From contig NZ_MCWZ01000246.1 of NCBI RefSeq assembly GCF_002877365.1, forward strand, positions 1-35,158: a stretch of DNA of 35,158 nucleotides, read 5' to 3'. Below the pieces are notes generated by a model. The model worked only from the letters and a program-made list of their open reading frames with translations, was not told where the DNA came from and ran no database searches. Both the position numbers and the translations under genes were made by a program. Positions 3,427-28,103 of this stretch are shown here, piece by piece (the stretch's first letter is position 1; every line of letters starts with the position of its first letter). This DNA is from Vibrio sp. 10N.261.55.A7. GTDB taxonomy: Bacteria; Pseudomonadota; Gammaproteobacteria; Enterobacterales; Vibrionaceae.

Positions 3427-4500
3427 ATGAGTAATTCAACATCAATTACCTCAAAAGGAAGTCTAATTCTTGCCAGTTTATTAAGCCTGACCTTAATGGG
3501 CTGCAACCAAGCAAATTCCGAAGTGTCGAATCACGTCATTAAACCCGTCAAACTCGTTGAAGTGCCTGATCTTCACGGTCCTCAATTTGATCGTTTTATT
3601 GCTGAAATTGACGCAACGCAACGCGCCAGTTTGTCTTTTCAGGTGGGCGGAAAGGTCGAATCTGTTTCTGTTAGGATGGGGGCAACGGTGAAGCAAGGAG
3701 AGGTACTAGCCCGCATCGACTCTCGCGACTTCACTCTCTTAGTCGAGGTTAAACAAGCCGAATACGATTTGGTTAAAACCCAGTTTGAACGTGCAAAACA
3801 ACTTATTGAAAAGCGTTTGATCAGTAAAGACAGCTACGATCAGATCCAAACAGCGTATACCGCTGCTGATGCCGAGTTAAAACAAGCACAAACCGATTTA
3901 GCGCATACCGTCATTCGAGCGCCATTCGATGGTGTGGTGTCGATTATCTTCACCAAATCAAGCCAAAACATCGCGCCCAATCAGCCTGTCATGAACGTGA
4001 TAGATAACAATGTAATGGACATCTCGTTCACGATTCCAAGTAGCTACATTGAACAATTTGGTCTTGAAATGGTGAAGTCAAACCCACTCACTGCGGTTAT
4101 GGACAGCCATCAAGATAGGAGTATCCAGGCCCGTTTCAAAGAGATTTCGACACAACCAAATATGGACACCAGCAGCTACACCGCGACTGCAACCATTCAG
4201 AAGCCGTCGGATATCAATCTCCTATCAGGCATGACCGGTCAGGTACAGCTGCTCAATTCAATGAAAGCCAATACCTACCACCCAGCTGAAACAGCATGGC
4301 TTGAAAAAGATGCAGGTTCTGGTGTGTTGTTGCGTTTCGACCCATCAACAGAAATGGTTAATCAAATCTCTGTGACTCTCGATTCTAACGGCAACATCAT
4401 CCAGGGGCTTTCCGAGGGTGACTTACTGGTTGAAGCGGGTGTCAAAGAACTCAACGACGGGCAACTCGTCAAAGCATGGACTCGCGAGGCAGGCATTTAA
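3427..4500 (+). CDS. RND efflux periplasmic adaptor (MFP), lipoprotein
   Basis: A membrane-fusion protein of the HlyD/AcrA class, 357 residues. It has a lipoprotein signal with lipobox LMGC and Cys26 as the expected acylation site. Next comes a biotinyl-lipoyl half-motif (FQVGGKVESVSVRMGATVKQ region, about 64-85), a coiled-coil hairpin (about 100-155), and the second lipoyl half around IRAPFDGVVS. It is the first of three genes: a 3-bp gap separates it from a second adaptor, which overlaps the permease gene. The double-adaptor layout resembles V. cholerae VexIJK and V. parahaemolyticus VmeGHI. Substrate is not readable from sequence. No outer-membrane factor is encoded here, so a TolC-type protein from elsewhere is probably used. 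Confidence 0.88.
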   Translation: MSNSTSITSKGSLILASLLSLTLMGCNQANSEVSNHVIKPVKLVEVPDLHGPQFDRFIAEIDATQRASLSFQVGGKVESVSVRMGATVKQGEVLARIDSRDFTLLVEVKQAEYDLVKTQFERAKQLIEKRLISKDSYDQIQTAYTAADAELKQAQTDLAHTVIRAPFDGVVSIIFTKSSQNIAPNQPVMNVIDNNVMDISFTIPSSYIEQFGLEMVKSNPLTAVMDSHQDRSIQARFKEISTQPNMDTSSYTATATIQKPSDINLLSGMTGQVQLLNSMKANTYHPAETAWLEKDAGSGVLLRFDPSTEMVNQISVTLDSNGNIIQGLSEGDLLVEAGVKELNDGQLVKAWTREAGI

Positions 4501-4503
4501 GCG

Positions 4504-5577
4504 ATGAAAATTAGAGATAATTCCAGACTAGTAAAACATGCAACCATCGTTATCGTTGCACTGTTACTTCAAGCGTGTAAACCGGAAACAGAACATCGCA
4601 CTCAGCCTAGCTTGATGGTGGACACTGTGACTGTAGGCGAGCCCATCGTCAGTCAGTATCGTAATTTTAACGGGCAAACCGTCGCGGCTGAGTTAACGCC
4701 ACTTTCGTTTCAAATCGAAGGTGAAATCTCAAGCTTGCTTGTTCAGGAAGGTCAAAGTGTGCGTAAGGGGCAGACCATAGCCATTCTCGATCACACCAAG
4801 CAGAAACAGACACTATTTGATGCTCAAGCCAAAATTGAACTTGCCATCAAGCAGTTTAGTCGCGGTAAAGAACTCTTCGCGCAAGAAATGATCTCCAAGG
4901 CCGAATACGATGAATTGCTAGCAAACTTTAAACTTGCTGAGGCCAATCTCGGCCTTGCTAAATCTCAAATGGAGTACACCCGTTTGGTTGCGCCAAGGGA
5001 CGGAGTCATCGGCAGTGTGAATAAAAAGATTCACGAAAATACGGCTGCAGGCGAAACCGTGGTCACCATCTACGACAGTCATCAAGTGTACGTAAAAATC
5101 AGCCTTTCTGATTCAGTATTGGCAACGCTCGACCCTAATAGAAACGCTTCCGCCTATAAGCCTATTGCAACCTTCACTGGCCACGACGGAGAGCACTCCC
5201 TTGGGTATTTAGAGCACACCAATGAGCTTCATCCAGAAACCAAAACCTACGAGTTGTGGATGACAATGCAACAAGTCGAGCCGCCAATATTGCCCGGTAC
5301 GAGTGTCACCGTCAGCGTAGACATGGTTAGAGCGGGCCTCAACAACGTGCAAGGTTTCCATCTACCAATGACTTCAATAGACACAGGTGTGAGCAGCGGT
5401 GATTTTTATGTATGGAAGCTTTCCAATGGCGTCGCAGCTAAGACCAATATCTCAATCAATCAAATAACGAGCTCTGGCGCGGTCGTTTCGACAGGCGTTC
5501 AAACAGGTGATGTGGTGATCAATTCTAATTTAAGAAAACTGCGTGAAGGGATGAAAGTTCAAGGAGTCACACCATGA
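4504..5577 (+). CDS. Second RND periplasmic adaptor (MFP), lipoprotein
   Basis: A second HlyD/AcrA-type adaptor, also 357 residues but clearly diverged from its upstream neighbour. The signal peptide ends in lipobox LQAC with Cys25 as the acylated residue. The first lipoyl half lies near residues 67-90 (FQIEGEISSLLVQEGQSVRK), followed by a helical hairpin and the second half near VAPRDGVIGSV. Its last four bases (ATGA) contain the start codon of the permease gene, so translation of the two is probably coupled. Two adaptors with one pump may form a mixed hexamer, as proposed for other two-MFP systems. That is family knowledge, not seen here. Confidence 0.88.
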   Translation: MKIRDNSRLVKHATIVIVALLLQACKPETEHRTQPSLMVDTVTVGEPIVSQYRNFNGQTVAAELTPLSFQIEGEISSLLVQEGQSVRKGQTIAILDHTKQKQTLFDAQAKIELAIKQFSRGKELFAQEMISKAEYDELLANFKLAEANLGLAKSQMEYTRLVAPRDGVIGSVNKKIHENTAAGETVVTIYDSHQVYVKISLSDSVLATLDPNRNASAYKPIATFTGHDGEHSLGYLEHTNELHPETKTYELWMTMQQVEPPILPGTSVTVSVDMVRAGLNNVQGFHLPMTSIDTGVSSGDFYVWKLSNGVAAKTNISINQITSSGAVVSTGVQTGDVVINSNLRKLREGMKVQGVTP

Positions 5578-8932: not shown

Positions 8933-10546
8933 CTATTGAGTCGCGTTAATTAATTGATAATCAGGGCCTGCGACATCAGCGGTGATGATAGCAAGTGATG
9001 CCACATCTGCACCTTGGTTTTGATAGCGATTGAAGCCGCCTTCTACCGTCAATTTCGGTAACTCAACGCTATAACTCTCAATCTGCTCTGCAGAGGCAAC
9101 CGTACCCGCGTAAAACTCCTCATTGTACGTCGCGCCTTGTAATGGGAAATCTTCCGTCGCGCGCACACTTACAAACTCTGGAGACTGTGAGTTATCAATA
9201 ACATTTTGACTAAACGCGATATCCACGCCACCATAAATGCCTTCCACTTCAGCATTGTTGAACAAACTGACGCGGTGGCTTTGATTGCCATACACAATGC
9301 CCCATTCAGTATCAACCATCGTGTTACTCGCGATTGTGATATTTTTCGGCGTCCACTGTTTGTTCAGCTCTTTCCCTTTCACCGATTGATCCAACTGCTC
9401 GCCATTTTGAACATCAATGATGCCAGTATTAATAACGATGCCACCACGAAGATCAGCATTGCCTTCAATCTCACCATCACGACCGCGTGTGTTGGCAATG
9501 TAGTTATTACGGATGACATGGTCTTCGTCATAGATACGGATACCACCAGTTAAACGTTTTTCATTGCCTAGAATCACATTGTCAGCAACCGTATTTCCTT
9601 TACCGTGGCGTAGAGAGATTAATGATGAACTTTGGAAAATGGTGTTGCCGGCAATCGTATTGTCTCCAGACTTAATGGAGATCAACTCACGCTCTCCGTC
9701 CATATCAATCATTAAGTTGTTGATGAACTGAGAACTGGAATCCCATTGCGAAGACTTTGAGTCGCCTATGCGAATCGCCTCCCAGCTGTTTCCGTTGTAT
9801 CGAATCGCTTCTTTGATATCAAACTCATTAAATTGGTTTGGCTTTTGGTCTAAGAAGATGTTGTTCGCGATGATATGGTTGTCTGGTTGATCATCTTTTT
9901 GAACTCCAATTAGCGTTCCGCGCTTTTGCTTGCCTTCAAAACGGTTGTTGATCACCTTTCCATCTTTGCCCCATAAAGAGAGCCACAAATATTTAGGGTA
10001 CTCAGAACGTCGCTCATCAGGCTCATACGAGTAATCGTGATTGAAGTAATAAAAGGTAGAGTTCTGCAATGTATTTCGGTCACCCATCATACGAATCGCA
10101 CCAAAGCGCTCACTCGGGCCACCAGCCGTAAACACAACACCGTCAATAGTGATGTCGTTGCCTTTCAATTCAAACTGAACAATACCTGTAAACCATACTT
10201 CCCCTGCATTCTCCGACTCTATTTTTATATTATTTGCGGTCACTAATGTGTGCCCTAAATTCGGATATTTGCCGCTTTTAATGGTGATGACGTCACCATC
10301 TTTCGCTTGTTCAATCTGATCTTTTAGCGCCAATACCTCGCTTTCCGACACTTCAGCAAGCGCTGCACCATCCACATCGCTTAAGCGATCACTTTGAAGC
10401 AAGTAATCGCGACTAATTTCGCTGACAGAAGTCTGTTCTTTCACTTGATTCATTTGTGTATTTTGATCGGCTTGAGTACCGCAACCGACAAGAGAAAATA
10501 CAGAGAGTGCACTAATAACGCTGATGGATAACAAATTCTTTTTCAT
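8933..10546 (-). CDS. PL6-family alginate lyase, lipoprotein
   Basis: A polysaccharide lyase family 6 (chondroitinase-B-like) enzyme that cuts alginate by beta-elimination. The 537-residue protein begins with a lipoprotein signal (lipobox LVGC, Cys22) and a polar linker to about residue 60. A right-handed parallel beta-helix follows, visible as recurring N-x-I/V rungs (NNRF, NNIF, GNTI, DNVI, NNYI). The catalytic Lys/Arg pair of the family is recognisable as Lys292 (ISIKSG) and Arg313 (SLRHG), with the 21-residue spacing seen in characterised members. The protein is therefore membrane-anchored and faces the periplasm or cell surface. It is co-directional with the symporter gene upstream, separated by 77 bp that contain a hairpin. 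Poly-M, poly-G or poly-MG preference cannot be told from sequence. Confidence 0.9.
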   Translation of the reverse strand: MKKNLLSISVISALSVFSLVGCGTQADQNTQMNQVKEQTSVSEISRDYLLQSDRLSDVDGAALAEVSESEVLALKDQIEQAKDGDVITIKSGKYPNLGHTLVTANNIKIESENAGEVWFTGIVQFELKGNDITIDGVVFTAGGPSERFGAIRMMGDRNTLQNSTFYYFNHDYSYEPDERRSEYPKYLWLSLWGKDGKVINNRFEGKQKRGTLIGVQKDDQPDNHIIANNIFLDQKPNQFNEFDIKEAIRYNGNSWEAIRIGDSKSSQWDSSSQFINNLMIDMDGERELISIKSGDNTIAGNTIFQSSSLISLRHGKGNTVADNVILGNEKRLTGGIRIYDEDHVIRNNYIANTRGRDGEIEGNADLRGGIVINTGIIDVQNGEQLDQSVKGKELNKQWTPKNITIASNTMVDTEWGIVYGNQSHRVSLFNNAEVEGIYGGVDIAFSQNVIDNSQSPEFVSVRATEDFPLQGATYNEEFYAGTVASAEQIESYSVELPKLTVEGGFNRYQNQGADVASLAIITADVAGPDYQLINATQ

Positions 10547-10623: not shown

Positions 10624-12399
10624 TTAGCTTTCAGTTTCTAGGGTGTTGTCTTGTCCTTCGACCTTATCATCAACCGCTTTAACAAGAAGCAAGCCAACAG
10701 AGAAAACAATCAAACCACACAGTACGAAGACCATACGTCCCCACATTGGGTTAGGCAGTACAAACATTGCCATAACACCCACACCTGCGACGGCAATCAA
10801 TGAACCAAGCATTCTGCGTTGTTTGTTATCAAGCTTCTTCTGCTCAGTACTTTCAGCAACGAGTGGTGTTGAAAGGTTGCTAAAGAATTTATCAACGTCT
10901 TTCTCACGATGCTCAGGCAATGGCTTGTAGAACAATGTTGATAGAACAAAGAAGCCAGCAGTAAAGACAACGTGACCGATAAGACCGATAGCCACTTTAA
11001 GATCTGACCACTCACGACCTGTGAGTTCGTTGTTCAAGTTGAACCAGCTTTCAATCATTTCCGCGGTGATAACAAAACCAACGAAGTAAGAAACAAAGCC
11101 ACCTACTACTAGCGTACCCCAACCTGCCCAATCTGGTGTTTTACGGATAAAGAAGCCACAGAACGCTGGAATAGTCATTGGGAAACCGATTAGCGCACCC
11201 ACATACATCATGGTGTCGAACAGGCTTAAACCTTTAAGAGAGTTGATGAACAACGCCACTAAAATGATCGCTAGGCCGAAGAATGTTGAGGTCAGTTTAG
11301 ACACGACTACCAGCTCTTTTTCAGTCGCTGCTGGACGAAGAATTGGTTCGTAGAAGTTCTTAACGAAGATACCTGAGTTACGGTTAAGACCTGAATCCAT
11401 TGAAGACATCGTTGCTGCGAACATTGCGGCAATAAGCAGACCTACCATACCTACTGGCATGTACTCTTGTACAAAGTAAAGGTATGCAAAATCAGCTGCT
11501 TTGCTGCCCGCTTCTGGGTACTGAGCGGCTAAATCGACACCTTGACCGGCAATAAACCAGCTAGGCATGAACCAAATGATAGGACCCAACGTCATTAGAA
11601 CACACGCTAGTAAAGCAGCTTTACGTGCATTGTTTGAGTCTTTTGCTGCAAGGTAGCGATAAGAGTTCAACATGTTGTTTGTGATGCTGAACTGCTTTAG
11701 GAAGATAAATACTGCCCAAATGCTAAAGATGCTAAGGTAATTAAGGTTATCACCCGTAATGAAAGAATCCGTCGGGAAGTTGTTAACGATGTTGGTTACG
11801 CCGCCGCCGTGGTAAACAGCAACAATCGCACAGGTAACCGTCACAGCCATGATGATGACCATCTGCATGAAGTCAGAAGCGATAACCGCCCATGAGCCGC
11901 CCGTAACAGACATCACTAATACAACCAGGCCTGTAAGGACAATAGTGGTTGTCATATCAAAGCCAAAGATACCAGAAGCAATGATTGCCAGACCATTTAG
12001 CCAAATACCAGCAGAGATAACGCTGTTAGGCATGCCAGACCAAGTAAACACTTGCTCGTTCACTTTACCAAACCGCATTCTAATCGCTTCGATAACCGTC
12101 ACAACACGTAGTTGGCGGAATTTAGGAGCGAAGTAGAGGTAATTCATTAAGTAACCAAATGCGTTAGCGATGAAGATAATTGCTACCGCAAAACCATCGG
12201 TAAACGCCTTACCGGCTGCACCAGTAAATGTCCATGCACTAAACTGTGTCATGAATGCTGTTGCGCCTACCATCCACCAAAGCATGCTACCTCCCCCTCG
12301 GAAATAGTCACTGGTAGTGCTTGTAAACGTTCTGAACATCCATCCTATCGCGATTAAAAATAGAAAGTAGATGCCAACAATGAGGGTATTGAGTTCCAT
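10624..12399 (-). CDS. SSS-family sodium:solute symporter (oligoalginate transporter type)
   Basis: An inner-membrane sodium:solute symporter of 591 residues with about 13-14 hydrophobic helices. It begins MELNTLIVGIYFLFLIAIGW and has the SSS signature region GGGSMLWWMVGATAFMTQFS. The frame stays open 46 codons further upstream, but the ATG at 12399 has a Shine-Dalgarno-like AAAGGT eight bases before it and starts directly at helix 1, so it is the better start. Its position next to a PL6 lyase and a KdgM porin matches the Toa oligoalginate symporters of V. splendidus. The gene probably takes up unsaturated alginate oligomers. A TTGTAGTACAA palindrome sits 60 bp upstream of the start. Confidence 0.88.
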   Translation of the reverse strand: MELNTLIVGIYFLFLIAIGWMFRTFTSTTSDYFRGGGSMLWWMVGATAFMTQFSAWTFTGAAGKAFTDGFAVAIIFIANAFGYLMNYLYFAPKFRQLRVVTVIEAIRMRFGKVNEQVFTWSGMPNSVISAGIWLNGLAIIASGIFGFDMTTTIVLTGLVVLVMSVTGGSWAVIASDFMQMVIIMAVTVTCAIVAVYHGGGVTNIVNNFPTDSFITGDNLNYLSIFSIWAVFIFLKQFSITNNMLNSYRYLAAKDSNNARKAALLACVLMTLGPIIWFMPSWFIAGQGVDLAAQYPEAGSKAADFAYLYFVQEYMPVGMVGLLIAAMFAATMSSMDSGLNRNSGIFVKNFYEPILRPAATEKELVVVSKLTSTFFGLAIILVALFINSLKGLSLFDTMMYVGALIGFPMTIPAFCGFFIRKTPDWAGWGTLVVGGFVSYFVGFVITAEMIESWFNLNNELTGREWSDLKVAIGLIGHVVFTAGFFVLSTLFYKPLPEHREKDVDKFFSNLSTPLVAESTEQKKLDNKQRRMLGSLIAVAGVGVMAMFVLPNPMWGRMVFVLCGLIVFSVGLLLVKAVDDKVEGQDNTLETES

Positions 12400-12457
12400 C
12401 TTTTGACCTTTATGTCTGTTTGTTTTGATAGGTAGACTATAATCCGGATAATCTTTA

Positions 12458-12470
12458 TTTGTAGTACAAT
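12458..12470. promoter_or_regulatory. FadR/GntR-type operator upstream of the symporter
   Basis: TTGTAGTACAA (12459-12469) is a perfect palindrome around a central base and fits the TNGTNNNACNA layout of FadR-subfamily GntR operators. It is one of nine related sites in the locus and lies about 60 bp before the symporter start codon. Confidence 0.6.
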
Positions 12471-12522
12471 AATCTAAATGCGTGATGCTTATCTCTATAT
12501 TGAAAGGAGTGGTAATCATACA

Positions 12523-12538
12523 AGTGATCAATGTCATA
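12523..12538. promoter_or_regulatory. CRP-like site upstream of the symporter
   Basis: AGTGA-TCAATG-TCATA matches TGTGA-N6-TCACA at 8 of 10 defined positions. The core TGATCAATGTCA is identical to that at 32915-32926 between the PL17 and kdgF genes. Confidence 0.45.
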
Positions 12539-12830: not shown

Positions 12831-12883
12831 ATAGATAGATAGGTAAGTAGGTAAATAGATAAGTAGATAAGTAGATAAGTAGA
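12831..12883. repeat. Tetranucleotide (RTAR-type) simple-sequence repeat
   Basis: A period-4 tract of about 50 bp. Its clearest part is three perfect tandem copies of TAGATAAG at 12856-12879, and imperfect units extend towards 12908. It lies between the symporter gene and the small-RNA candidate. An open frame runs through it on the minus strand (12810-13019) but has no support as a gene. In the wider gap 12400-13443 I see, besides this, only operators, the CRP-like sites and the RNA candidate. Confidence 0.7.
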
Positions 12884-12908: not shown

Positions 12909-12993
12909 AAAAAAAACGCCCATACTGCCTGTATCAGTATGAGCGAAAGGTAGATTCCCACTACCTGTCATTACCTCGAGGGTGCGGTAATGA
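12909..12993 (-). ncRNA. Candidate small RNA with three hairpins and terminator
   Basis: Read leftward, about 85 nt fold as three consecutive stem-loops. Hairpin 1 is TCATTACC / GGTAATGA with a 10-nt C-rich loop (12968-12993). Hairpin 2 is AGGTAG / CTACCT with loop TGGGAAT (12948-12966). Hairpin 3 is an 11-bp stem, CGCTCATACTG / CAGTATGGGCG, with one G-U pair (12917-12945), followed directly by eight T residues. The hairpins are separated by only one or two bases. The last one is a textbook intrinsic terminator, yet no gene on this strand ends here. A weak AATAAT -10 box lies at 12997-13002. It could instead be the structured leader of a longer transcript. No known RNA family was recognised. 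Confidence 0.5.
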
Positions 12994-13128
12994 TTCATTA
13001 TTAACGTAATTGTGAGCAATCAAGAAAGAGTCAGTTCATCAACTTGAACAAAAACTATTAATTCCCTATTTAGGGTATAAACCGCATCCACAAGTTCATT
13101 TACTGTCTCTCTCGACACAAATATATTA

Positions 13129-13443: not shown

Positions 13444-14136
13444 ATGACTAAAATGAAAACTCTTGTAATCGCAATGGCCTCTATCATGACCGCTGGAGCT
13501 GCCTCTGCTGCTGCTCTAGACGTTCGCCACGAATACAAGAATAGCTCAGAGCAACACGCTACTCGTGTAAAGCTTGCTAGCAACATCGACAACTTCCTAG
13601 TAGATATTGAAGCTAAATTCAAAGGTCAAGACGGAAAATTCCTTCAAGACCTACAGAACAACGGCTGGGAACTTGGTCTAAACTACCGTCACAAATTGAA
13701 TGACAGCTGGACACTCACTTACGGTATGCCAATCGAAGGCCGTACATCTGGTATGACGTACAAACCACAACTTCGTGCAACTTATGCTGTTAAAAGTATT
13801 GATGGACTTAGCCTAAGTGCTCGTTACCGTTATGACATGCGTCAAAACAACACTTCAGACGACCAACGTCGTCACCGTCTAACGGGTAACATTAACTACA
13901 GTGTAAATGATTGGAGATTTGGTCTAGAAGCGAACTACTACAAAGCTGACGACTACATTCTTTACAAAGACAAAGACACCAACACTGAGTTCAACTCAAC
14001 TATCCGTCGCATCATGGGTCAATGGGCACCGTATGCAGAGTTTGGTTACTCTTCTTACACTAAAGATGATTCTTACAACGGCTACAACAACGACTTCGAA
14101 CTACGTAGCCGTGTTGGTCTAACATATAGCTTCTAA
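13444..14136 (+). CDS. kdgM: KdgM/KdgN-family oligouronate-specific outer-membrane porin
   Basis: A 230-residue monomeric beta-barrel porin of the oligogalacturonate-specific KdgM family, the usual size for a 12-stranded barrel. A signal peptide ends near residue 22 (TAGAASA). The mature part alternates polar and aromatic residues in short strands and ends in a C-terminal Phe (VGLTYSF), the outer-membrane sorting signal. Several Arg-rich strands (SARYRYDMR, DQRRHRL) fit an acidic-sugar channel. In alginate-using Vibrio such porins carry alginate oligomers, and the flanking SSS symporter and PL6 lyase support this here. It could equally be named kdgN. A good hairpin terminator follows, so it is probably monocistronic. 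Confidence 0.9.
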   Translation: MTKMKTLVIAMASIMTAGAASAAALDVRHEYKNSSEQHATRVKLASNIDNFLVDIEAKFKGQDGKFLQDLQNNGWELGLNYRHKLNDSWTLTYGMPIEGRTSGMTYKPQLRATYAVKSIDGLSLSARYRYDMRQNNTSDDQRRHRLTGNINYSVNDWRFGLEANYYKADDYILYKDKDTNTEFNSTIRRIMGQWAPYAEFGYSSYTKDDSYNGYNNDFELRSRVGLTYSF

Positions 14137-24634: not shown

Positions 24635-25108
24635 ATGAAATCACATGTCGATATCGCAAAAGACGCAGTAGAACTGGTAACCCCTGCAATTAACGAATTG
24701 TTCAAACGTACGAATCGACAAGAACTCCACGTTGTCATTATGGATCCTAGATTAAAGCCTTGGGAATCAACATTTTCTGATGCCATTCTCTATGAAACCT
24801 CCTTTGGCAACTCTGCAGAATGGACAATTCCTTTCGACCAACTTGCTAAGAAAAAAGCACAGCAAGCTTGGAGAAATTCAGGTGCAAACTTAGTAAACCA
24901 AACCCTTCACACCGCTTCACTCAAAGACGACGATTTACTTTTCTATGGCTCTTTTGTCTATGGCGATGTCGTTGTCGCGTGCAGTGGTGTTGAACAGTGG
25001 TATGACATGCTCATCAGTGGCTGGATTGCAGTGGCAATAGAACAGTTATGCATGAGTGAGTACCAAAATAATAAGATAGAAAACCCTACACAAACGTACA
25101 GAAACTAA
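24635..25108 (+). CDS. Unrecognised 157-residue protein leading the TTT operon
   Basis: I do not recognise this protein. It has no signal peptide or transmembrane helix, so it should be cytoplasmic. Its layout, an N-terminal helix, a VVIMDP strand and a C-terminal VVACSGVEQWYDMLISGWIA segment, is loosely reminiscent of the GlcG/HbpS (DUF336) fold, but the usual motifs are not clear. A good ribosome-binding site (AAGGA) precedes the ATG. The gene lies 23 bp before the TctC-type gene and behind the operator, so it is almost certainly co-expressed with the transporter. A role in handling the transported acid is possible but unsupported. Confidence 0.75.
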   Translation: MKSHVDIAKDAVELVTPAINELFKRTNRQELHVVIMDPRLKPWESTFSDAILYETSFGNSAEWTIPFDQLAKKKAQQAWRNSGANLVNQTLHTASLKDDDLLFYGSFVYGDVVVACSGVEQWYDMLISGWIAVAIEQLCMSEYQNNKIENPTQTYRN

Positions 25109-25131
25109 AGATAAAAACAAAAGGACTGATT

Positions 25132-26058
25132 ATGAACAAGCTTCTTAAATCTCTATTCATCGCTGCGGGCCTAATGGTCTCTGCAACCTCTATAGCTGCT
25201 GACTACCCAAGCAAAAACATTCGTTTAGTTGTACCTTTTGGTGCAGGTGGCGGTACTGATGCCGTTGGCCGTACTTTGGCTAACTCTGCAAAAGATATTC
25301 TAGGACAAAACATCGCCGTCATGAACAGAACAGGTGGTGCTGGCGCAGTAGGCATGAGCTTCGGCGCTCAGCAACGTGCTGATGGTTACACTCTGACGGT
25401 CGTGACTCGTGAGATTGCTTCATTACCTCAAATGGGGTTAATGCAACATGACGCGAGTGATTTCAAACTGATTAGACTCGTTAACCTTGATCCAGCGGTC
25501 GTATTGGTATCAGCAGATAGCCCTTACAACACAATCAACGACCTCATTGCAGATGCGAAGAAAGGTGAAGGAACCGTGAAGTTTGCTTCTACCGCTGCGC
25601 CTAACTTCTACCTAATGGCGCTTGAAAAAGACCAAAATATCAAACTGAACGCCATTCCTTACAACGGAGCTTCAGAAGCCATTCCTGCAGTTCTAGGTAA
25701 GCACACAGACGTGACTATGGTAACGCCTGGAGAAGCTATTGCTCAACTGCGCTCTGGTCAGCTTAAAGCGTTAGGGGTTATGTCTGAAGAGCGTATTGCT
25801 TACATCCCAGATGTACCAACTCTAAAAGAGCAAGGTGTTGATGTTATTACTGGTACATGGCGTGGTATTGGCGCGCCTAAAAACACGCCAGACGAAGTCA
25901 TTGAAACACTAGGTAAAGCATTCGACGAAGCAATGGCGAGTGCAGAATTCAAAGAGTTCATGGAAAAAGGCGCAATGACTATCCACAACATGAATGCTGA
26001 AGAGTTCACTCAGTTCGTGGCTGACGATACAAAATCACTTAGCACTTTAATCAACTAA
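25132..26058 (+). CDS. TctC-type periplasmic substrate-binding protein of a TTT transporter
   Basis: The substrate-binding component of a tripartite tricarboxylate transporter. It has 308 residues with a cleavable signal peptide ending near Ala23 (SIAADYP). The family signature follows: IRLVVPFGAGGGTDAVGR, then NRTGGAGAVG, IPYNGASEAIPAVLGKHTD and the late PDVPTLKEQG. Members bind carboxylates as diverse as citrate, glutarate and terephthalate. Here the setting suggests a monomeric uronate or DEH-like acid, which is inference. A strong terminator separates it from the membrane-component genes, so this protein is probably made in excess. Confidence 0.9.
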   Translation: MNKLLKSLFIAAGLMVSATSIAADYPSKNIRLVVPFGAGGGTDAVGRTLANSAKDILGQNIAVMNRTGGAGAVGMSFGAQQRADGYTLTVVTREIASLPQMGLMQHDASDFKLIRLVNLDPAVVLVSADSPYNTINDLIADAKKGEGTVKFASTAAPNFYLMALEKDQNIKLNAIPYNGASEAIPAVLGKHTDVTMVTPGEAIAQLRSGQLKALGVMSEERIAYIPDVPTLKEQGVDVITGTWRGIGAPKNTPDEVIETLGKAFDEAMASAEFKEFMEKGAMTIHNMNAEEFTQFVADDTKSLSTLIN

Positions 26059-26069
26059 AACATGGTTAT

Positions 26070-26100
26070 GGAGCTTTCAATTGAAAGCTCCTTTTTTTTT
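26070..26100 (+). terminator. Strong hairpin terminator inside the TTT operon
   Basis: Perfect 11-bp arms starting GGAGCTTTCAA, with no spacer, followed by nine T residues. It lies 11 bp after the binding-protein stop codon and before the TctB-type gene, so readthrough must feed the membrane genes unless they have their own promoter. Confidence 0.92.
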
Positions 26101-26141
26101 GGTAAGTCTCATTTCTAAATATCTTTATCCATGGTGAACCT

Positions 26142-26603
26142 ATGTTTAATAGACATGTATTTTTCCCATCATTGGTCATTGTCTGTAGCGCCATAATTCT
26201 GTTTTTGGTTGGTCAATTTGCAGAACCTCGTTTTCAAGACGCTAGCGTCGATGCCAAATTCTTCCCAGCGGTTGTCGCCATACTTCAAATTGTCATTTGT
26301 ATTGCCTTGATCGTTCAACACCGAATGAAGTCAGCGAAAGAGGCAACCCTATCGGAATCAGGCCAAACTCCAATGATTTCTCGCATGGCGATCTTCGGTA
26401 CTGTGTTCTTAATTGGCTACGCCATTCTCATCAGCATTGTTGGCTACCTATTCGCGAGCCTGATTGCATTTACGGCGTACTTAATTTTCTTCAAGATCAA
26501 AAAGCCGCTCTACTACGGCGTCGCATGGACGTTCGTTTTCTGTGTTTATTACCTCTTCGGTGAAGTGTTTTATATCTCTTTACCTCAAGGCATTTTTTAT
26601 TAA
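26142..26603 (+). CDS. TctB-type small membrane subunit of the TTT transporter
   Basis: A 153-residue inner-membrane protein with four predicted helices, the size and layout of the TctB family. The segment FFPAVVAILQIVICIALI, after a short periplasmic stretch, is typical of it. It follows the intra-operon terminator by about 40 bp and precedes the large permease gene by 9 bp. The small subunit has a poorly defined but required role in TTT systems. Confidence 0.85.
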   Translation: MFNRHVFFPSLVIVCSAIILFLVGQFAEPRFQDASVDAKFFPAVVAILQIVICIALIVQHRMKSAKEATLSESGQTPMISRMAIFGTVFLIGYAILISIVGYLFASLIAFTAYLIFFKIKKPLYYGVAWTFVFCVYYLFGEVFYISLPQGIFY

Positions 26604-26612
26604 GGAATTGCT

Positions 26613-28103
26613 ATGTTAGAGCATTTAATGAATGGCCTTTTTGTTGCCTTTAGTCCAGCCGTTTTACCCGTTCTAGTCTTTGGTGTCGTTGGCGGTATTG
26701 TACTTGGTGCACTGCCTGGGCTAACCGCCACAATGGGTGTTGCGATTCTTTTACCCTTCACTTTTGGTATGGAGCCAACGTCAGCATTAGTCATGCTTAT
26801 TGGTGTCTATATCGGTGGCATTTATGGGGGTTCTATTGCCGCCATACTGCTTAAAACACCGGGTACGCCCGCTTCCGCTGCTACCGTGCTTGACGGGCAT
26901 ACCCTTGCCGTTAAAGGACAAGCGGCCCGCGCGTTGAGTATTTCTGCAGTCGCGTCTTTCATAGGCGGTATTATCAGTACGATGGTACTGATTGGCATTG
27001 CGCCAATGTTGGCGAACTTTGCACTGCGTTTTAATGCGCCAGAGTATTTTGCATTAGCACTCTTTGGTTTAACGATAATCGCCAGTGTTTCGTCGCAGAA
27101 TATCTTAAAAGGGCTACTCGCCGGTACCATTGGTTTGCTTGTGTCTACTGTGGGGCTTGACCCAATCAGCAGTGTACCAAGATTCACTTTTGGTGTGATG
27201 GACCTCTACAGCGGCATTAACGTTATTCCTGTTCTTATCGGTTTGTTTGCTCTTTCAGAAGCCATCAATCAGATTGAAAAAATCATTGATGAGAAGAAGG
27301 CAAAAGTCGCCAAGTTTGATCACAAACTGCTGAGCAAAGCTGACATCAAAGAGATGATGCCAACCGCAGTGAAAAGCGGAATCATGGGTACAACCATTGG
27401 TTCAGTCCCTGGTGCAGGGGCGGATATCTCAGCATTTGTTTGTTACAACGAAGCAAAACGCGTATCGAAAAACCAAGACGAGTTTGGCAAAGGCTCGGTT
27501 AAAGGGCTGGCAGCAGCAGAAGCTGGCAACAACGGCGTAACGGGTGGTTCATTAGTTCCGTTGCTAACGCTCGGTGTTCCCGGTGATGCAACAACCGCCG
27601 TATTGCTTGGCGCACTGATTGTTCAAGGGCTAACGCCTGGGCCACTTCTGTTTACTCAAAATCCAGATATTGTTTATGGCATTTTCAGCTCAATGCTGGT
27701 CGCTAACGTTCTGATGTTGATTGTTGGATTGATTGGTATTCGATTCTTCTGCCGCATCATTGAAGTGCCTAAGATGCTGATGATTCCAATCATTATCTTC
27801 TTGTCTGTCGTTGGCGCTTACGCCATCAACAACTCAATGTTCGACGTTGGAATTGCGATTGCGTTTGGCTTATTGGCCTTTGTGTTAGGAAAACTAGACA
27901 TCCCTACCTCGCCTATTCTCCTCGCCATCATTTTGGGGCCAATGGCTGAAACCAACCTTCGTAAAGCATTACTGATGTACGACAACAGCTGGTCTTTCTT
28001 GTATGAGCGCCCGATTGCCCTTGCGTTTATCTTGCTGGCTATCTTCTCTGTTTATTCGACCATGAAAATGAAGAAGAAACAGCAACTCAAAGCAGCGAGT
28101 TGA
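26613..28103 (+). CDS. TctA-type large permease of the TTT transporter
   Basis: The main permease subunit, 496 residues with about 12 helices, the normal TctA length. Family motifs include GALPGLTATMGVAILLPFTF near residue 30 and the inverted-repeat counterpart SVPGAGADISAFVCYNEAK near residue 267, followed by GVPGDATTAVLLGAL. It is a secondary transporter driven by an ion gradient and fed by the periplasmic binding protein encoded two genes upstream. A terminator follows, closing the unit 157-residue protein, TctC, TctB, TctA. Confidence 0.92.
   Translation: MLEHLMNGLFVAFSPAVLPVLVFGVVGGIVLGALPGLTATMGVAILLPFTFGMEPTSALVMLIGVYIGGIYGGSIAAILLKTPGTPASAATVLDGHTLAVKGQAARALSISAVASFIGGIISTMVLIGIAPMLANFALRFNAPEYFALALFGLTIIASVSSQNILKGLLAGTIGLLVSTVGLDPISSVPRFTFGVMDLYSGINVIPVLIGLFALSEAINQIEKIIDEKKAKVAKFDHKLLSKADIKEMMPTAVKSGIMGTTIGSVPGAGADISAFVCYNEAKRVSKNQDEFGKGSVKGLAAAEAGNNGVTGGSLVPLLTLGVPGDATTAVLLGALIVQGLTPGPLLFTQNPDIVYGIFSSMLVANVLMLIVGLIGIRFFCRIIEVPKMLMIPIIIFLSVVGAYAINNSMFDVGIAIAFGLLAFVLGKLDIPTSPILLAIILGPMAETNLRKALLMYDNSWSFLYERPIALAFILLAIFSVYSTMKMKKKQQLKAAS

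What the first reader, a model, noticed from the sequence alone, without database searches (positions are those of the whole stretch)
12909..12993. Three back-to-back hairpins ending in U8: an orphan small-RNA candidate
On the minus strand three perfect or near-perfect stems follow each other with only 1-2 nt between them, and the last is a complete intrinsic terminator. No annotated gene ends here; the nearest gene on this strand starts 500 bp further on. The first loop is C-rich (CACCCTC), a form able to pair with Shine-Dalgarno sequences. Its location between porin and symporter genes suggests control of uptake.
Basis: partly seen in the sequence, partly recalled or inferred. Interest (0 to 1): 0.75.

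Follow-up and report, generated by a model that had tools for sequence, protein, structure and literature searches.

The report
Alginate-locus small RNA aimed at glycolysis
Three hairpins in a row beside the alginate-eating genes of a Vibrio keep their shape in related species while their letters change, so they are likely a small regulatory RNA; the first loop holds an exact nine-base complement of the ribosome-binding site of the glycolysis gene pfkA, which it is predicted to switch off.

Summary
In detail: minus strand 12993-12909 carries stems of 8, 6 and 11 bp ending in U8. It has no Rfam match. It is a family: 50 of 329 Vibrionaceae genomes match a covariance model, and the eight weakest matches all lie upstream of the same symporter gene. 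Eleven of 26 pairs show two-sided changes. So it is very likely a small RNA gene, although no transcript has been seen.

Porin or symporter as target is not supported. Loop 1 holds CACCCUCGA; its complement TCGAGGGTG occurs 16 times in the genome, and among the 15 places outside the RNA gene the only ribosome-binding site found is that of pfkA. A diverged relative, G023, matches its pfkA site over 10 bases, again the only ribosome-binding site among its matches. Another, G083, matches tpiA over 12 bases instead. Against this, 9 of 14 lineages pair with pfkA no better than shuffled seeds. Expression, induction by alginate and repression are inferred.

The parts
12995..13019 (-). promoter-like block (TTGCTCACAAT ... 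TTAATAAT) ahead of hairpin 1: predicted promoter or regulator site; start site not mapped
   Evidence: aligned with TTGCTCCCAACTATTCTAATTATAAC in relatives (A1); only exact match to TTGCTCMCAAY in the window; the simple sigma-70 scan finds no promoter here
12968..12993 (-). hairpin 1, 8-bp stem with C-rich loop
   Evidence: in A1 six of the nine pairs of hairpin 1 show two-sided changes
12976..12984 (-). predicted seed CACCCUCGA in loop 1, complement of the pfkA ribosome-binding site UCGAGGGUG
12948..12966 (-). hairpin 2, 6-bp stem
12909..12945 (-). hairpin 3 (loop AUACAGG) and U8: intrinsic terminator
12909..13000 (-). whole predicted small RNA, about 85-92 nt
   Evidence: transcript not observed
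10624..12537 (-). neighbour: sodium/solute symporter (SSF), downstream on the same strand; synteny marker
13444..14136 (+). neighbour: KdgM-type outer-membrane porin, divergent
8933..10546 (-). neighbour: protein of the Pfam chondroitinase B family (alginate lyase of the PL6 type by context; PL6 recalled)

Best explanation
Minus strand 13000-12909 is likely a stand-alone small RNA gene whose C-rich first loop holds an exact nine-base complement of the pfkA ribosome-binding site, and it is predicted to block PfkA synthesis, probably while the cell lives on alginate. Mechanism: transcription would start at the foot of hairpin 1 from the conserved upstream block and stop at hairpin 3 and U8 (inferred). 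The loop CACCCUCGA would pair with UCGAGGGUG, 3 nt before the pfkA start codon, and keep ribosomes off (complementarity shown by sequence; repression inferred). Alginate breakdown delivers pyruvate and glyceraldehyde phosphate, so hexose must be made by gluconeogenesis; lowering phosphofructokinase would prevent a futile cycle (pathway knowledge; here inference). The seed drifts between lineages; in one (G083) it fits tpiA instead.
For: Structure. Covariation on A1 (24 distinct sequences): 11 of 26 pairs and 31 cells with two-sided change, each reached by 0 of 500 shuffles; slid controls 5-8 pairs; 7 of these 11 pairs are in hairpins 1 and 2, which played no part in choosing the rows. Model-fitted A2, 38 sequences: 25 of 26 pairs (leans towards the structure). 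Family and place: 50 of 329 genomes, 49 of those 50 among the 105 with SSF at E<=1e-200; the 8 weakest hits all sit 271-772 nt upstream of SSF on its strand. Coding unlikely: the window's 62-aa ORF has no counterpart longer than 38 codons in the other 23 rows. Target: TCGAGGGTG 16 times in the genome, one self, of the other 15 only pfkA is an RBS by my test. In G023, AAATCGAGGG 5 times, one self, only pfkA an RBS. Seeds of 5 of 14 lineages pair with their own pfkA site at p<=0.05 against shuffled seeds; Fisher p 8e-4 without the window's lineage, 1.2e-3 when G030, G222 and G035 are left out too.
Against: No transcript data. No sigma-70-like promoter found at 13000-13040. One covariation measure (further pair types) was reached by 70 of 500 shuffles. 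In 9 of 14 lineages the seed pairs with pfkA no better than shuffles at p<=0.05: G035/G052, G139/G104, G126, G327/G016, G007/G008, G083, G222, G021 and the V. splendidus type (G017); G033 and G279, seen but not, are also weak. Without both the window and G023 the Fisher p is only 0.015. In G030 and G035 the seed lies outside the model match, and G222 is no model match. pfkA was noticed after scanning for loop complements, so the first hit is post hoc; seeds were delimited by hand. 2 of 176 control starts, from other genomes, pair as well with the window's seed. The pfkA site is much the same in 3 of 4 genomes without the RNA, so the target shows no adaptation. In G023 part of the seed is held in a weak stem. 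Induction by alginate rests on location only.
Confidence: 0.53

Rival explanations
1. A real small RNA, but pfkA is not its main target: the C-rich loop is a general anti-Shine-Dalgarno module whose targets differ from lineage to lineage.
For: 9 of 14 lineages show no pfkA pairing beyond shuffles; G083 fits tpiA over 12 bases and a second start (MSKDFTQSL..., 11 bases) instead; V. splendidus-type members lack a C-rich loop 1 and carry GCTCCCAAC further upstream.
Against: pfkA is the only ribosome-binding site met by the seed complement in two genomes whose seeds are extended differently.
Confidence: 0.3
2. A cis element: leader, attenuator or spacer terminator for the downstream symporter (SSF) operon.
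For: Same strand and upstream of SSF in the window and in the eight weak-hit loci.
Against: Where SSF is next, the gap to its match is about 210-770 nt; in V. splendidus-type loci a gene of opposite orientation stands between (L029: terminator stem to 4211, MORN-repeat gene 4266-4877 minus, SSF from 5361; L024 alike); in L066 the nearest SSF match is about 7 kb away. I did not search the whole leader for antiterminator folds.
Confidence: 0.07
3. A 3'-UTR-derived RNA, or a mere terminator, left by a lost iron-type alcohol dehydrogenase gene that once preceded it.
For: In L074 a full Fe-ADH ORF ends 109 nt before the 3' arm of the terminator, and in L090 (a similar element that the model does not match) 100 nt before it; ADH-like scraps precede the element in L030 (same locus as L070), L071 and L072 (E 6e-4 to 0.5).
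Against: It explains the origin, not why the hairpins covary and the place is kept after the gene decayed; no ADH remnant was found beside the window's element; L094 has the dehydrogenase but only a partial chance-level model match.
Confidence: 0.06
4. One reading: the RNA controls uptake by pairing with porin or symporter mRNA.
For: Location between the two genes.
Against: Pairing with KdgM and SSF starts lies within the shuffled range.
Confidence: 0.04

Closest known systems
sX13 of Xanthomonas (PMC3771888; abstract and passages seen)
   Same: Strongly structured RNA of three stable stems with C-rich apical loops; represses mRNAs with G-rich motifs near translation starts.
   Different: Different genus; no sequence comparison was made. 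sX13 has C-rich motifs in all three loops, here only loop 1 (in G023 the C-rich stretch lies in the second hairpin region); sX13 acts without Hfq, not known here.
Vsr217 of Vibrio tasmaniensis (PMC8265627; passages seen)
   Same: Vibrio RNA carried by a sugar-uptake locus and acting on the fructose-6-phosphate/fructose-1,6-bisphosphate step: it represses fbp during growth on maltose.
   Different: Lies in the malK 5' UTR, with no Rho-independent terminator predicted before malK; opposite enzyme (fbp, not pfkA); another locus.
srvg23535 of Vibrio alginolyticus (PMC6186989; passages seen)
   Same: Vibrio-restricted stem-loop RNA of 107 nt whose deletion alters carbon-source use.
   Different: Lies beside rctB, has four stem-loops, reported absent from V. 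aestuarianus.
Rfam OmrA-B and trpB motif
   Same: Two of the four weak Rfam matches in the region.
   Different: 15.5 and 22.1 bits against gathering scores of 40 and 59: not members.

Membership tests
trans-acting bacterial small RNA gene | discrete structured non-coding transcript ending in an intrinsic terminator | tested here: inconclusive
   structure and terminator met, no conserved ORF; transcript not testable
trans-acting bacterial small RNA gene | structure conserved by compensatory change | tested here: met
   11 of 26 pairs, 0 of 500 shuffles
trans-acting bacterial small RNA gene | base pairing with a distant mRNA | tested here: inconclusive
   complementarity to pfkA in some lineages, not in 9 of 14; regulation not testable
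any of 4227 Rfam 15 families | score at or above gathering threshold | tested here: not met
   window and 17 related loci; weak scores
sX13-type RNA | C-rich motif in all three loops | tested here: not met
   only loop 1 is C-rich; it may work like sX13, it is not filed under it
Hfq-dependent sRNA | binding and stabilisation by Hfq | not testable with these tools
   only the U8 tail is compatible
cis-regulatory leader of SSF | always co-directional with and adjacent to the SSF gene | tested here: not met
   opposite-strand gene in between in L029 and L024; SSF about 7 kb away in L066

The most novel reading that the evidence does not exclude
A polysaccharide-utilisation locus carries its own RNA switch for central metabolism: an sRNA family bound to the alginate locus of Vibrionaceae that turns glycolysis down when alginate is eaten, with a seed that evolution re-aims from one glycolytic mRNA (pfkA) to another (tpiA in one lineage) while the three-hairpin frame is kept.
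Probability: 0.38. Interest if true: 0.78.

Novelty: new member of a known kind. Interest (0 to 1): 0.57.

Why it matters
It would tie the alginate locus of marine vibrios to control of the glycolysis/gluconeogenesis branch point, the mirror image of Vsr217 (which represses fbp on maltose), and would give a natural series of re-aimed C-rich seeds on one frame. Rfam 15 has no matching family, and the listings of eight literature searches showed no paper on an RNA at this locus. The 2012 small-RNA survey of V. splendidus LGP32 (recalled; cited) is not held, so it may already list the transcript.

Tried and rejected
Rejected or without result: (a) Rfam membership. (b) Porin or symporter as target. 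(c) A coded peptide: the window's 62-aa ORF runs through the terminator; in the other 23 rows ORFs from that zone have 38 codons or fewer and differing frames, two rows have none. (d) tpiA as the general target: of 19 genomes with both a seed and a located tpiA start only G083 is at p<=0.05; four more starts had no seed to test, and G030 had no tpiA match at the threshold. (e) A shared G-tract target for the CCCCC-seed species: 191 TTGGGGG-N-ATG matches in five genomes, listing capped; of the 20 I fetched three looked like real starts (by my reading a 5'-deoxynucleotidase-like, a sugar-isomerase-like and a formate-channel-like protein) and none was shown to be shared. (f) The 11-mer terminator loop as a handle: in 315 of 329 genomes, useless. 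(g) Copies of the upstream block in the window: 49 matches with up to 2 mismatches, 39 expected. My recollection that E. coli DicF represses pfkA was checked and is wrong: direct targets are ftsZ, xylR and pykA. (h) No symporter beside the element of G126: dropped, because its contig ends 409 nt downstream.

Rows dropped: L022 (weak BLAST match) lacks the element and was left out of A1; duplicates were collapsed to 24 rows, and the rows were picked with a pattern that requires TGATACAGGC and purine/pyrimidine positions in hairpin 3, so conservation there is partly by construction. pfkA starts were located in 28 of 30 genomes (G161, G155 missed by my start pattern). One search used 18 seeds in 14 lineages; genomes not carried into it: G279 (-6.4 kcal/mol) and G033 (-5.9), the V. 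fortis group G009/G031 (-12.0), and G268, G024, G317 (V. splendidus type, about -10.4, represented by G017). In 20 further SSF-upstream regions, from 19 of the 56 SSF-positive genomes without a model hit, 13 gave no match at E<=0.01.

Full report
Observation. The minus strand of 13000-12900 folds into three consecutive hairpins of 8, 6 and 11 bp with spacers of 1 and 2 nt, the last followed by U8; -32.6 kcal/mol, z -3.72, 0 of 200 shuffles as stable. The terminator is recovered by an independent scan. Fifteen of 7016 windows of 85 nt fold at least as well, so stability alone is weak evidence. The element has one match in its genome, itself, and no Rfam match at gathering score; its weak Rfam scores are far below threshold.

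Surroundings. Downstream on the same strand lie a sodium/solute symporter (10624-12537) and a protein of the chondroitinase B family (8933-10546); divergently lies a KdgM-type porin (13444-14136). The contig also holds two genes resembling oligoalginate lyase (below the curated cut-off), a KDG kinase (above it) and two GntR-type regulators: an alginate-use locus by context. The 11 named contigs with the exact terminator pattern are ten Vibrio and one Vibrionales record, among them V. splendidus, V. crassostreae, V. tasmaniensis, V. lentus, V. fortis and V. aestuarianus.

Family. BLAST finds it in 20 of 147 other genomes of the genus. Twenty-four distinct sequences were aligned: 26 consensus pairs, 11 with a two-sided change; 31 such cells against 7.2 in shuffles, 0 of 500 as high; sliding the partners gives 34.6-58.7% paired cells against 96.0%. 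A further measure, extra pair types, was reached by 70 of 500 shuffles. The rows were picked by a pattern in hairpin 3, so the independent evidence is in hairpins 1 and 2, which hold 7 of the 11 pairs. A covariance model finds 50 of 329 Vibrionaceae genomes at E<=0.01, three of them in a second genus. Forty-nine of the 50 are among the 105 genomes with the symporter at E<=1e-200; the exception, G123, has an element with a broken U run. The eight weakest matches (E 5e-6 to 4e-3) are all 271-772 nt upstream of the symporter match, on its strand, which the model could not know. In 20 further symporter-upstream regions the model finds 7 more at E<0.01 and none at that level in 13. Alignment of 38 members to the model shows two-sided changes in 25 of 26 pairs, but that alignment leans towards the structure.

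Not cis, not coding. In V. splendidus-type loci a gene of opposite orientation separates the element from the symporter (L029, L024), and in L066 the nearest symporter match is about 7 kb away. The 62-aa ORF across the window's element has no counterpart above 38 codons in the other 23 rows.

Origin. In L074 a full iron-type alcohol dehydrogenase gene ends 109 nt before the 3' arm of the terminator; L090, a similar element by place, C-rich loop and terminator but not a model match, has one at 100 nt. Short dehydrogenase-like scraps precede the element in L030, L071 and L072 (E 6e-4 to 0.5). My reading, an inference: the RNA arose behind that gene and outlived it.

Loop 1. Many diverged members have a C-rich loop 1 or flank: CACCCUCGAG (window), CCCCCCGAG (L021), CACUCUCG (L072, L074), UUUCCCCCAAA (L073), AUCCCCCAA (L076), GCUCCCCCC (L075), UUCCCCCCC (L077), CACCCCCGGAG (L083), ACCCCCGGAG (L093), CACCCCCGAAG (L084), ACUCCCUUCUAA (L088) and CCCCUCGAG (L091). 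In L083 and L091 this stretch lies just 5' of the model match. Exceptions are the V. splendidus and V. fortis types, the second genus and L067. In G023 CUCCCUCGAUUU lies in the second hairpin region, partly in its stem.

Target. Pairing with the neighbouring porin and symporter starts is within the shuffled range. Scanning the genome for GAGGGTG followed by ATG gave 39 places; of the 30 fetched, six had an ORF of at least 70 codons from that ATG, four of these inside a longer open frame; the two left were an unnamed 95-aa ORF and pfkA, whose site reads TCGAGGGTGAGCATG. The full 9-mer occurs 16 times: once in the RNA gene itself and 15 times elsewhere, of which pfkA alone precedes a start codon with an ORF of 60 codons or more. 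GAGGGTGAGCATG stands before pfkA in 22 of 28 genomes where the start was located, including 3 of 4 genomes without a model match. In G023 the 10-mer AAATCGAGGG, complement of its shifted seed, occurs five times: once self, once at pfkA, three times at no start. Against seeds shuffled for composition, 5 of 14 lineages pair with their own pfkA site at p<=0.05 (window 0.0045, G023 0.003, G303 0.01, G277 0.018, G030 0.0375); 9 do not. Fisher p is 7.5e-5 for all, 8.1e-4 without the window, 1.2e-3 when G030, G222 and G035 are left out too, and 0.015 without G023 as well. Among 176 control starts pooled from held loci, 2 pair with the window's seed as well as pfkA does, both from other genomes; for G007, G008, G083 and G222 44 to 103 do. 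Seeds were delimited by hand and lineages are related, so these numbers are indicative.

A second glycolytic target. In G083, where the loop reads ACUCCCUUCUAA, it is a perfect 12-base complement of that genome's tpiA ribosome-binding site; of 19 genomes with seed and tpiA start tested only G083 is significant. The 11-mer occurs three times in G083: RNA gene, tpiA, and the start of a membrane protein that I read as a cbb3 oxidase subunit (recalled, not scanned). I met this by chance, because tpiA lies near pfkA and entered the control pool.

Mechanism. Shown: structure, covariation, place, complementarity. Inferred: transcription from the conserved upstream block (no sigma-70-like hit there), Hfq binding, repression of pfkA by covering its ribosome-binding site, and induction on alginate. 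Pathway logic (established knowledge): alginate enters as KDG and yields pyruvate and glyceraldehyde phosphate, so phosphofructokinase would oppose gluconeogenesis. The nearest mechanism is sX13 (abstract and passages); the nearest physiology is Vsr217 (passages).

Verdict. A conserved element, very likely an undescribed small-RNA family; ordinary in kind, unusual in its locus and in its predicted central-metabolism target.

Noticed in passing
window 12832-12883: A degenerate TAGATAAG tandem array (6.5 copies of 8 bp) lies behind the terminator, between the RNA and the symporter gene. I did not look for it in relatives.
   Followed up: no
L074:8100-9413 and L090:645-1874: Iron-type alcohol dehydrogenase gene ending about 100 nt before the element in some species and apparently decayed to scraps in L030, L071 and L072.
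   Followed up: partly
window 24635-28103: Four consecutive ORFs of 157, 308, 153 and 496 aa without NCBIfam hits; the sizes of the last three suggest a tripartite tricarboxylate-type transporter (recalled), a class reported for alginate use in Vibrio sp. C42 (PMC13390454, listing only).
   Followed up: no
upstream of the RNA in V. splendidus-type loci (e.g. L003, L029): A strongly conserved block TTGCTCCCAACTATTCTAATTATAAC ends about where hairpin 1 begins in most A1 rows; either promoter plus regulator site or a 5' unpaired seed.
   Followed up: partly
L029:4266-4877 and L027:6294-7883: MORN-repeat protein and chemotaxis receptor genes stand between the RNA and the symporter, or beside the RNA, in V. 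splendidus-type loci.
   Followed up: no
terminator loop, window 12934-12928: The terminator loop AUACAGG is invariant in A1, partly by construction since rows were picked with it; members found by the model vary (e.g. L064, L066) but often keep ACAGG, unusual for a mere terminator.
   Followed up: no
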